From the NCBI RefSeq assembly GCF_032854445.1, contig NC_088306.1, positions 12,767,386-12,831,385 on the forward strand: a stretch of DNA of 64,000 nucleotides, given 5' to 3'. Numbering within the stretch: position 1 is the stretch's first letter; each line of letters opens with the position of its first letter. Position numbers and translations under genes: made by a program. Shown here one piece after another: positions 25,343-42,838 of this stretch. The stretch comes from Liolophura sinensis. Taxonomy: Eukaryota > Mollusca > Polyplacophora > Chitonida > Chitonidae. The notes below the pieces were generated by a model. It saw only the letters and a program-made list of their open reading frames with translations, had not been told where the DNA came from and searched no databases.

Positions 25343-25439
25343 ATGGCCACCGATCTGATGCCTGCCAAACCATTTATGGCGACTGATACATTGAAGACTT
25401 GGGGACAGCCATCTGTTTGCTACAGTCAGAGAAATGCTG
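25343..25439 (+). CDS. Homeobox gene 1, exon 1
   Basis: ATG at 25343 with A at -3; donor GCTG|GTGAGT, phase 1. Encodes [20 protein letters not shown] and 12 more residues. The 5' UTR probably continues upstream to about 25067. Confidence 0.72.
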
Positions 25440-28400
25440 GTGAGTAAACGATTGTTGTTTGGATATTTTAAACAAGTAACTTGCCATTGTTTAATGAATT
25501 TGTGAATAATTCTAATGTATTACATAAATTACATTTGCTTCTCGAAATGTTCTGCATTTGTTTATTTGATTGAATATTCTGTGAAATTAAGTTTTATATT
25601 GTACATGTATTTAACGAGATGTTAATTTCCTTCTTAAGTTCTGTAATTAGTTTTTATTTGGTTCAAGCTGCGTTTGTCTGTTTTTATATGAAATGTATTT
25701 TTTGTATTTATTTATTTTATTTATTTATTTTTTGTTTATTTGATTGGTGTTTTACGCCGTACTCAAGAATATTTCTCTTATACGACGGCGGCCAGCATTA
25801 TGGTGGTATTTTTTGTATTTATACAATGAGTTAAGATTGTGTTACTAGTACTAACTATTTATAGGCCACGAAACAGTTTAGAAAGACAAAAACTATGGTC
25901 ATTAATTTTCTAACGCAGTATTAATTCATAACCATGTTCTGTCCTATATGGATTGTGAATTCTAAAAATAGGCACTTCGATATATACGTAAATACGTATA
26001 TAACAGTATATTAAAAAAAAGAACAAACAATGTTAAAAAGGACGCTTTTATTTAGAAAATTGACATAAAAGTTCATTATATTTTGACTAAATTTAGCGAT
26101 AGCTATACTTTGTTTTTTACCATAAACATATTGTTTTTGTAAAAGGTACGATGTGTTTACTCTTAAATACACTAGTTAATATCACAGAAATATAAGTAGC
26201 AAAATAAGTTGATGTTGAAGTTACACATTACCACAATTTTACACTTTATATAATCTTAGTTACTCAGTGATACTTTTGGTTATATAGTTTCTTGTTAGAA
26301 ACTATAATTTAAATGATGCTATATTACCATGATGACCTAGTGCTTTTTATTATTTTGTATTTCGATTATTCTTTGGATATTCGGTTGAAGTCATTATGGG
26401 AATAAAATCAACCCTCATAAAAGTTCCTGTAGAGATTTTTCGCGGAAAATATATCCAGAAAATGTCGCAGCAATGTAGCCTAAGTTCAGTTACAATATTT
26501 CGTGAAAGTGACCTTGCGCGATCTTGCTTTCATTGTTCTTAAACTTTTCTGTCATCATTATTTTTTTCCTCCCAATATCATAGAATTTGCTTATTACATT
26601 AACATTGCCTTCTCATTAAGATGAATAAACGAAAAGTATGTATTAAGCGCTTTGAAGTATAGTATTGCTTATGAATTATTCCATTTCGTCTATTTTATAT
26701 TTCGCTCCACGTACGTGAGAAGGTTTTCCAGCCACCAGCGGATGGTTGTGGGTTTCCCCCGGGCTGTGCCCGGTTTCATCCCACCACAATGCTGGCCGCC
26801 GTCGTATAAGTGAAGTATTCTTGAGTACGGCGTAAAACACCAAAGAAATAAATAAATATTTCACCCCAATCATGTAAAGCTGTATTTGAAGGTTGTGACA
26901 ATGCTGTGTTGTATCTAGTAATGTCCTCGCAATGCAAGTGTACTTTTACCTCCGCTAGAAACACATCTGTATCAATCAACTTTGTGTAGACCTTTTTTCC
27001 CCAAAAAGAGCAAATAAGTTCAGATTCCCGTTACTAAGGAAATTCTCTAAAGGTGTCGTCCACGTACATTACATGCTGTCCACCCGGCTCTCTGGAGAGG
27101 GGCCATTAATTATCCTGTTAATATTGAACATAATTAGGTTTTGTGTAGAATGGGATCGATTAGCAATTATAATGGCAGAGGTCACCCTGTTGCTACCCCG
27201 TAGAACTAGCCTTTTGTTGTGGGGTCAATTTTGCTGGTGGAAAGCTACGACCCCCAACAAAACCCGGGTCTTGTTAGTCTCGCTGCATCACCTGGCGCTT
27301 TTGTTATGTCCTCAACGCTGGACGACTTCTGACAGACTATTTGTGATCATAGATCTGAACAAATGGACTTTTTCAGTCGGCCAACCCAGCAATTAGGCTA
27401 AATAATAAAACAAAGCCTAAATCTTTGTAAGCGACAGCTTGCTGTCCTTTGCGGCGTCCTCAAAGGTGTTCAAGCTGTTAAATGTTCGTCGACGGTTTGT
27501 GACGACAGGGATGAGCAAATTAAGTTCAATTAACTGTTTAGATATTATCCATAAACTTTAGGGGCTGGAGTGGAGGAGGCCGTAATTATGGGAAACAAGA
27601 CTGATCCACATTTCCTCTGCCCTGCGACCTTGTCAAATCATTTCTCGATGAACAAAACTTTAACTACGGGTTTCTGATTGACCTGTCACTACCAGCGACA
27701 CTGAGCCATGAGGTTATCAATAGCCCTGCACGTGCGCCATTGTCGTGTGCTGTGTAGTTAACAACTCCTTCAAGCAGACGACCGTTGAGCGCATTGTCCT
27801 GGTCCATTCTTTCGATGTGATTCACGTGCAAATATTTGCAGCTTATGTCGTAATGGCACTCCAAGTTATGTCGTTCCCAACACGTGCATGTGACACCCAC
27901 GTGCTGGCAGGCCGCGCAACGCCCAAATTGCTAAAACAGCACAGCAAGGGAAGATCTGATCAGCAGATACTGGCCAATATCAAAATTCAGTGAAAGTACA
28001 ATAGTTTCCATTTGGTGAAACGGAGATCGTAACCAGATTTGTCATACACTTGAAAACACGTACACCGTTTAAAGAAATATAATTCAATATAATATGAATA
28101 CAACACAACATACAGGTGTAATGCATTCTTGTAAGCATAGTTTTGTGGTTAAAATTACTGTTTACTCGATCTCTACGGTGTTGTTTACCTTGGAAAAAAG
28201 ACTTCTTTGTGAAAAGTCCCTGAACGCTGGAAATTCACTGAAAAATGGTCATCGAAATTTCAACTAACCCTAGTCATTGTTGATTACAGGTGATCTGTAC
28301 ACCTGCCCGCAGATGACTTCAAATAAGCCGACAGCAACAGGTGGAAAGCGGAAGTCCAGTCCTCCGTTTGACGGTCCAACCAAAGTCCGTCAAAGGTGCG

Positions 28401-42300: not shown

Positions 42301-42838
42301 GCTGGCTGTATTATAGAAGACATTCATCTCTCAAGCAACCCGCTGAAGCGTTACCCCACTTCAGTACTCTTGACGCTAAGCCAGTATTCTTCTTTCATAC
42401 ATTTCTTGGAACTAACATTCTTCTGCAAAATCAATATTTGCGCCAAAAAAATGTAATATATTCATTTTTGTTTTTTGTTTTTCAGTCGCTCTGCCTTGTC
42501 TACCCCAAGCAAGTAGTGGGATTGTCAACCCGACGTCGTGTCCTTACCCGTATGATAGATGGCCATCAACGTCACCTGACGCAACGACCCCATTTTGTCA
42601 CCCACGTTTCATGTTTCCACCAATGTCACAAAGTACCTATCCATTTCCGCTTTATATTCCACCGTACAGTTTCAGCTCCAGTTCCGGGTTTTCAGCGTCT
42701 TCGTTGATGAGCCACCTCTCACTGGCCTTCAGTTCACCCGATTATACTTCACCGAACCAAGCCTACGCCATGAACGAGGCAGGGTTACGTCAAAACGCCG
42801 TGCGGAAGTTCAAAACCATGAAATTTGAAGGAACATAA
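33179..42838 (+). CDS. PRD-class homeobox protein 2 (Repo-like), 264 aa
   Basis: Nuclear transcription factor. Five exons: 33179-33320, 40753-40855, 41636-41759, 41872-41944, 42486-42838. Phases are 1, 2, 0, 1, identical to homeobox gene 1. Residues 20-27 read HAIDNILG, an octapeptide/eh1-type motif that in PRD-class proteins recruits Groucho-type corepressors. The homeodomain (residues 78-137) has R5, W48, F49, Q50, N51 and R53, with [16 protein letters not shown]. It is followed by ETPRK. My recollection is that fly Repo has a very similar stretch; Unc-4-like LVESRVQ is also present. The C-terminus is Pro/Tyr/Ser-rich and ends with [10 protein letters not shown], which fits the A-x-L-R-x-x-A spacing of an OAR motif. 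Exon 1 is joined over a 7.4-kb intron on phase and motif grounds and is the least certain exon. Confidence 0.85.
33865..33955. repeat. Short tandem repeat, about 24 bp
   Basis: Repeats of ATAATCATAATGGCGACC, imperfect, about three copies. Confidence 0.7.
34848..35300. repeat. 34-bp minisatellite, about 13 copies
   Basis: Unit TGATATATCTTTTGTCCAC then T/C-GATTTGTCTT; spacing exactly 34 bp (34928, 34962). Variable positions toggle between TTTTA and TTCCA. Confidence 0.95.
36222..36317. repeat. (AT)n microsatellite, about 95 bp
   Basis: Uninterrupted TA dinucleotides; the open frame over it is meaningless. Confidence 0.98.
36622..36668. repeat. 13-bp tandem repeat
   Basis: GGCAACGACTGGT repeated about three and a half times. 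Confidence 0.9.
37678..37725. repeat. 13-bp tandem repeat
   Basis: TTTGTATGACATT repeated three to four times. Confidence 0.85.
37805..37890 (+). mobile_element. SINE family 1 tail copy
   Basis: CACTATAATGCTGGCTG...TAAGTGAAATATTCTTGAG with an AAATAAATGAATA end. Confidence 0.8.
38150..38560. promoter_or_regulatory. Candidate intronic enhancer, homeobox gene 2
   Basis: Dense homeodomain-type sites (GGTTAATTATTC, GTTAATTGCC, GCTAATTAATGC, CAATTATC), a POU octamer ATGCAAAT at 38453-38460 touching TAATTAAT, and an NRF1-like TACGCATGCGCACG near 38322. No repeat family, coding frame or splice signal explains this block. Confidence 0.42.
39040..39400. promoter_or_regulatory. Second candidate regulatory patch in intron 1
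   Basis: E-box GACAGCTGTGC, CTAATTACAC, GTTGACCTTTAAG and TTGTCACAATTC in non-repetitive sequence just before the 20-bp array. Confidence 0.25.
39428..39722. repeat. 20-bp minisatellite, about 15 copies
   Basis: Unit GATGGTATAACACACATTTG. Units ending CATTTG and CGCTTG partly alternate, giving a 40-bp or longer higher-order pattern. One unit is truncated at about 39600. Confidence 0.93.
39925..39990 (+). mobile_element. SINE family 1 tail copy
   Basis: GCCGCCGTCGTATGAGTG...GAACACCGATCAATTA, a 3' end only. Confidence 0.7.
40288..40661 (-). mobile_element. SINE family 2, full-length
   Basis: Starts with (GAGT)n and GCTTGGGGTTTAACGTCG, and ends with the tRNA-like head read in reverse (CTCTACCAACTGTGCTATC). 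An 8-bp duplication CATGCCGT (40280-40287, 40662-40669) flanks it. It ends about 90 bp before exon 2 of homeobox gene 2. Confidence 0.9.
40753..40855 (+). CDS. Homeobox gene 2, exon 2
   Basis: Acceptor CTTCATTTAG, donor TACAG|GTGAGC. Encodes a polar stretch ending PKKKSRY, with the Arg5 codon split AG|G as in homeobox gene 1. An internal ATG at 40776 could serve as a start if exon 1 were not joined. Confidence 0.8.
40926..41180 (+). mobile_element. SINE family 1, full-length
   Basis: GGGCCTCCGTGGCTCAGTTGG through GTAAAACACCGATCAAATAA, with an internal gap that removes part of the tail (CCGCCGTCTTGAGTACGG). In the intron between exons 2 and 3 of homeobox gene 2. Confidence 0.9.
41636..41759 (+). 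CDS. Homeobox gene 2, exon 3 (helices 1-2)
   Basis: Acceptor GGATTTACAG, donor GTTCAG|GTGAGA. Homeodomain residues 6-46 ([18 protein letters not shown] onwards). Same length (124 bp) as its counterpart in homeobox gene 1. Confidence 0.95.
41872..41944 (+). CDS. Homeobox gene 2, exon 4 (recognition helix)
   Basis: Acceptor TTATTTGCAG, donor TCTA|GTAAGT. Encodes [18 protein letters not shown] and six further residues. Confidence 0.95.
42486..42838 (+). CDS. Homeobox gene 2, exon 5 and stop
   Basis: Acceptor TTTTTTGTTTTTCAG; TAA at 42836-42838. Encodes a Pro/Tyr-rich segment ([21 protein letters not shown]) and the OAR-like end. Confidence 0.88.

What the first reader, a model, noticed from the sequence alone, without database searches (positions are those of the whole stretch)
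25343..42838. Tandem PRD-class homeobox pair with four identical intron phases
Two same-strand five-exon genes share intron phases 1, 2, 0, 1, equal-length helix 1-2 exons (124 bp), the [16 protein letters not shown] signature and a similar Tyr/Pro-rich C-terminus. That is strong evidence of tandem duplication. If they are Repo-like, a duplicated Repo in a lophotrochozoan is unusual and bears on how glial-type homeobox genes evolved.
Basis: partly seen in the sequence, partly recalled or inferred. Interest (0 to 1): 0.75.

Follow-up and report, generated by a model that had tools for sequence, protein, structure and literature searches.

The report
Old tandem Repo-like homeobox gene pair
A chiton (a mollusc) carries two neighbouring homeobox genes that look like old duplicates of Repo, the gene that fruit flies use to make glial cells, a gene that one recent review lists as missing from the mollusc-and-worm branch of animals.

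Summary
The pair is real. Gene A (25343-30734) is a clean five-exon gene of 252 residues with intron phases 1, 2, 0, 1. Gene B (40753-42838) has four clear exons with a phase-1 acceptor upstream, then phases 2, 0, 1; its first exon was not found with confidence. The APYPDVF DNA pattern has exactly two matches in the 609-Mb assembly, A and B. A tree of 31 homeodomains from this genome joins A and B (98/92). Old tandem duplication of a Repo-type gene is well supported, but not for the reasons given: the intron after residue 46 is common in this class, the other homeodomain intron also appears in both Vsx genes, the 124-bp exon follows from those two, and the C-terminal likeness is no better than shuffled sequence. 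Synonymous change is too high to measure, so the duplication is old. Local PRD pairs are common in this genome. A mollusc Repo (oyster) is already in print. Whether the pair is chiton-specific, and what it does, is untested.

The parts
25343..25439 (+). Gene A exon 1 (97 nt, starts ATG, ends phase 1)
   Evidence: open frame from ATG, donor GCTG|gtgagt
28290..28395 (+). Gene A exon 2 (106 nt, basic stretch before the homeodomain, ends phase 2 inside the Arg5 codon)
   Evidence: acceptor ttacag, donor AAAG|gtgcga
28759..28882 (+). Gene A exon 3 (124 nt, homeodomain residues 5-46)
   Evidence: acceptor gaacag, donor ACAG|gtaaac; Pfam PF00046
29686..29761 (+). Gene A exon 4 (76 nt, homeodomain helix 3, [14 protein letters not shown])
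   Evidence: acceptor ctttag, donor GAAG|gtatgt, phases 0 and 1
30379..30734 (+). Gene A exon 5 (356 nt, Ser/Pro/Tyr-rich C-terminus, stop)
   Evidence: acceptor tttcag, open to TAA
32711..32726 (+). Tentative gene B exon 1 (MCLSS|G); uncertain
   Evidence: only donor scoring above 5.5 in 30740-40752, and phase 1
40753..40855 (+). Gene B exon 2 (103 nt, basic stretch PKKKSRY before the homeodomain; holds an ATG that could be the start)
   Evidence: acceptor atttag (phase 1), donor ACAG|gtgagc (phase 2)
41636..41759 (+). Gene B exon 3 (124 nt, homeodomain residues 5-46)
   Evidence: acceptor ttacag, donor TCAG|gtgaga; Pfam PF00046
41872..41944 (+). Gene B exon 4 (73 nt, helix 3 and [24 protein letters not shown])
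   Evidence: acceptor ttgcag, donor TCTA|gtaagt
42486..42838 (+). Gene B exon 5 (353 nt, Pro/Tyr/Ser-rich C-terminus, stop)
   Evidence: acceptor tttcag, open to TAA

Best explanation
Genes A and B are paralogues from an old tandem duplication of a single Repo-type PRD-class homeobox gene. Shown: both keep an intact homeodomain under strong purifying selection, with Gln50 and the helix-3 core WFQNRRAKW, lie about 13 kb apart (exon 3 to exon 3) on one strand, and are the only places in the assembly with an exact APYPDVF-coding pattern. Inferred from known PRD-class biochemistry: each is a transcription factor that binds TAAT-type sites through its homeodomain, while the unlike C-termini let the two act with different partners. 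B looks like the conservative copy (closest to recalled fly Repo, with a similar stretch just after the homeodomain, also recalled) and A the faster-changing copy. A role in nervous-system cells is likely; a glial role is a guess.
For: A+B form a clade with own-genome rows only, 98/92. With recalled references A+B 98/77 and A+B+Repo 96/89. Exact APYPDVF pattern at two sites of the assembly, A and B. In the search with B's homeodomain (75 matches; 150 of 159 candidates scored) no place other than B itself and A exceeds 74% identity. Homeodomain dN 0.14 while dS could not be computed, read as saturated; of 56 codons 13 differ in residue, 22 only synonymously.
Against: On exon 3 alone the margin is one residue: A matches B at 77%, chiton Arx-like L019 and Alx match B at 74%. 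A-B ranks 15th of 465 own pairs by identity, partial rows counted. Only one residue (Pro24) in positions 5-46 is private to A and B among the 31 own rows. With 58 columns the AU test does not reject A+Repo (p 0.485), B+Repo (p 0.379), A+Arx-like L019 (p 0.134) or A+B+Vsx (p 0.389). Both trees warn of few columns and of a bootstrap that had not settled. The Repo reference is recalled, not fetched. C-termini show no likeness above shuffles.
Confidence: 0.8

Rival explanations
1. Only B is Repo. A belongs to another, perhaps lophotrochozoan-specific, PRD clade whose homeodomain resembles B by ancestry deeper than Repo or by convergence of the loop residues.
For: A-B identity (32 of 42) is barely above B-Arx-like or B-Alx (31 of 42 each); the AU test leaves B+Repo without A open (p 0.379); A lacks B's post-homeodomain stretch; oyster has several unplaced PRD genes beside one Repo (PMC5322547, passages).
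Against: A+B clade 98/92; APYPDVF pattern only in these two; adjacency on one strand.
Confidence: 0.13
2. A and B are an Arx/Alx- or Vsx-type pair, not Repo: the phase-2 intron in the Arg5 codon is shared with the Vsx genes.
For: Vsx1 and Vsx2 show an acceptor at the same place; A+B+Vsx is not rejected (p 0.389).
Against: The genome has separate Vsx, Arx and Alx genes (names by recall); A+B+recalled Repo 96/89.
Confidence: 0.04
3. The pair is an assembly artefact such as an uncollapsed haplotype.
For: The source animal is heterozygous (1.24%, PMC11068029, passages).
Against: 76% homeodomain identity and 28 of 56 third codon positions different are far beyond haplotype difference.
Confidence: 0.01

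Closest known systems
Repo (reversed polarity) homeobox family, PRD class; fly Repo, and oyster Repo CGI_10005826 listed in PMC5322547
   Same: PRD-class homeodomain with Gln50 and APYPDVF loop (fly sequence recalled); joins A and B in the tree
   Different: The oyster list shows one Repo, the chiton has two side by side; no expression known here
Arx and Alx families (chiton L019, L064, L065, L015; names by recall)
   Same: Next nearest homeodomains; L019 and L015 match B at 74% over exon 3
   Different: THYPDV loop instead of APYPDV; do not join A+B with support
Vsx family (chiton L046, L048; names by recall)
   Same: Acceptor at the same phase-2 place in the Arg5 codon and a break after residue 46; also a local pair
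   Different: AHYPD loop; separate clade, 100/98 and 100/97
Lophotrochozoan PRD clades I-VIII (PMC5322547 and PMC6118893, passages)
   Same: Extra PRD genes of molluscs and annelids, a possible home for A

Membership tests
PRD-class homeobox | Homeodomain | tested here: met
   PF00046 at 2.7e-23 (A) and 9.8e-24 (B)
PRD-class homeobox | Closest solved relatives are PRD-class homeodomains | tested here: met
   For B: best PDB matches are aristaless, DUX4, ALX4 and paired; A was not searched
Repo | Homeodomain groups with fly Repo | tested here: inconclusive
   A+B+Repo 96/89, but the fly sequence is recalled and rivals are not rejected
Repo | APYPDVF loop in the homeodomain (recalled signature) | tested here: met
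   Exact pattern at two sites in the assembly, A and B
Repo | Expressed in glia or under control of Gcm | not testable with these tools
   No expression data. Gcm-type sites (motif recalled): 8 in 64 kb, one 255 bp before B exon 2 and one inside B exon 5, the other six outside both genes. The Gcm family search did not complete
Tandem duplicates | Each other's nearest relative in the genome | tested here: met
   Clade of A and B 98/92 with own-genome rows; by raw identity over 58 columns B is slightly nearer to the Arx-like L019 (78%), and on exon 3 the margin for A is one residue
PRD genes with a C-terminal OAR motif | OAR motif | tested here: not met
   No OAR listed for A or B by Pfam at E up to 10, with HMMER's filters on

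The most novel reading that the evidence does not exclude
Repo is an old two-gene cluster in molluscs or more widely in lophotrochozoans: a slow copy that keeps the classic Repo sequence and a fast copy that has until now been filed, if at all, among unplaced PRD clades. If so, lophotrochozoans not only kept Repo, against a recent review, but split its job between two neighbours, possibly neuronal and glial.
Probability: 0.25. Interest if true: 0.5.

Novelty: new member of a known kind. Interest (0 to 1): 0.35.

Why it matters
Repo sets glial differentiation in flies and is absent from vertebrates (PMC11193209, passages), so its presence elsewhere bears on whether glia share one origin. [quoted passage not shown] the oyster list (PMC5322547, passages) and this chiton pair speak against the lophotrochozoan part. 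A flatworm larva expresses a gene called repo in a neuron cluster (PMC10396302, passage), and in a bobtail squid atlas no expression of Repo or Gcm orthologues was observed (PMC12240821, passage). Two chiton copies give a place to ask whether glial and neuronal roles were split.

Tried and rejected
Intron phases and equal exon length as proof of duplication: rejected as strong evidence after comparison with other PRD genes of the same genome.

C-terminal similarity: rejected by shuffles.

Gcm-type binding sites (motif recalled): 8 in the window against 3.66 expected, 1 of 100 shuffles as many, but not clustered at A or B; not used.

Relatives in viral contigs: none. Repo homeodomain letters in papers: 0 papers for APYPDVF; a six-term search gave 330 papers, of which the 10 listed looked irrelevant by title (listing only). 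A tandem-Repo literature search found 0 papers, but one of its whole-word terms was cut short and could hardly match. I make no firm claim that a chiton Repo pair is unpublished; the searches were made, listings only except for the papers whose passages are cited.

Papers opened with nothing on Repo by that word: PMC2938728, PMC9712504, PMC5055395 and PMC6118893. PMC6123671 and PMC2211742: passages seen, the latter listing Repo among families lost from humans.

Presence of Gcm (PF03615) in the genome: asked, never answered.

First exon of gene B: searched by ATG plus phase-1 donor; one weak candidate.

Full report
Where it is. The window is G000:C12:12767386-12831385 of a 609,464,459-base assembly in 632 contigs. 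The number of scaffolds (632) is the same. The species was published as Liolophura japonica and corrected to L. sinensis (PMC12441733, whole text read). The organism is therefore a polyplacophoran mollusc.

What is there. Gene A splices into a 252-residue open frame from five exons with GT-AG introns and phases 1, 2, 0, 1. Gene B splices from four located exons with phases 2, 0, 1 and a phase-1 acceptor in front. Both homeodomains score far above the Pfam cut-off. A six-frame Pfam scan of the whole window found homeodomain matches only in the middle third, 21.3-42.6 kb (3 of 12 frame segments), tripeptidyl peptidase II in the right third, and one weak match to a domain of unknown function in the left third. 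No third homeobox gene was seen in the window at that sensitivity.

How strong is the evidence for duplication. In 24 of 24 rows examined the homeodomain match stops at residue 46-47. The GT seen there is trivial, since codon 47 is Val; the sign of the intron is the loss of the homeodomain frame. These rows were picked because their match ended near 46, so the count is biased; three rows with an unbroken homeodomain (L061-L063) and two Arx rows that break after residue 31 (L064, L065) differ. An acceptor in the Arg5 codon at phase 2 is seen for A, B, Vsx1 and Vsx2; in the other 22 rows the frame runs on into the homeodomain arm or, for Drgx, breaks a few residues earlier (the Vsx donors were not located). 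The two introns together force a 124-bp exon, so its equal length adds nothing. The C-termini score like shuffled sequence. What does hold: the exact APYPDVF DNA pattern has two matches in the assembly, A and B, against one for the backward control, and A and B are sisters in trees with and without outside sequences.

Is it Repo. In the 41-row tree (31 own, 8 recalled, 2 from PDB alignments) A, B and a recalled fly Repo homeodomain join at 96/89, A and B at 98/77. B matches recalled Repo at 33 of 42 positions, A at 30 of 42, and A matches B at 32 of 42, while B matches the chiton Arx-like L019 and Alx at 31 of 42 each. The margins are small, the alignment has 58 usable columns, the program warns of few columns and an unsettled bootstrap, and the Repo row is from memory. 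AU tests do not reject A+Repo, B+Repo, A+Arx-like L019 or A+B+Vsx. I call the pair Repo-like paralogues with confidence 0.8. Family names of the other chiton rows are by recall of homeodomain signatures, from no call.

Are there more copies. The Pfam homeodomain search scored 150 of 312 candidates in the genome, and the search with B's homeodomain scored 150 of 159. In the latter, apart from B itself and A (77%), no place exceeds 74% identity. Both are lower bounds, and I read the sequence of only part of the matches.

How old. Over 56 homeodomain codons, 28 third, 18 first and 3 second positions differ; 21 codons are identical, 22 differ only synonymously and 13 differ in residue. NG86 gives dN 0.14 and no dS value, which I read as saturation; YN00 gave no result. 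The duplication is old and both copies are under purifying selection. Whether it came before or after molluscs arose cannot be told from one genome.

How it works (inferred). Both proteins keep Gln50 and the helix-3 core, so both should bind TAAT-type sites. The regions outside the homeodomain share no detectable sequence, which fits different partners or regulation. Fly Repo acts downstream of Gcm in glia (PMC11193209, passages). Outside insects the picture differs: a flatworm larva shows repo in neurons (PMC10396302, passage), and in a bobtail squid atlas no expression of Repo or Gcm orthologues was observed (PMC12240821, passage). A neural role is likely, a glial role unproven.

How unusual. 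The review PMC11193209 states in its Table 2 legend that Repo is not in Lophotrochozoa. PMC5322547 lists a single oyster Repo (passages), so the presence of Repo in a mollusc is not new; two adjacent copies may be. The same chiton genome holds close pairs of Vsx (42 kb), Pitx (53 kb), Gsc (65 kb), Arx (150 kb) and Pax3/7-type genes (17 kb) (names by recall), so local pairs are common in this class here and the A-B pair is not exceptional in kind.

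Noticed in passing
L010, L011, L021, L025 (G000:C8 15.09-15.22 Mb and 32.58-32.64 Mb): The Hbn-Rax-Otp cluster looks split in this chiton: Rax lies 130 kb from an Hbn-like gene, and Hbn lies 62 kb from Otp about 17 Mb away on the same scaffold (names by recall).
   Followed up: partly
L012/L013, L028/L034, L046/L048, L061/L063, L064/L065: Other PRD families (Pitx, Gsc, Vsx, Pax3/7-type, Arx; names by recall) sit as local pairs 17-150 kb apart in this genome.
   Followed up: partly
window 40925-41186: A dispersed SINE-like repeat of about 250 bp lies in intron 2 of gene B; BLAST of that intron gives 20 further matching pieces across the window.
   Followed up: partly
window 61227-61565, minus strand: Exon of tripeptidyl peptidase II (TPP2), the only neighbour gene recognised by name in the window.
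   Followed up: yes
window 12347-13333, plus strand: A 329-residue open frame that looks like a coding exon but reaches no Pfam cut-off.
   Followed up: partly
window 15502-16242, 34843-35295, 39427-39720, 47537-48333, 63627-63965: Long tandem repeat arrays with units of 43, 34, 19/57, 49 and 66 bp.
   Followed up: no
G000:C5 1.10-1.16 Mb and G000:C9 8.21-8.24 Mb: Arrays of homeodomain exons with equal or near-equal scores (11 and 10 matches, lower bounds), which look like recent local expansions of divergent homeobox genes.
   Followed up: no
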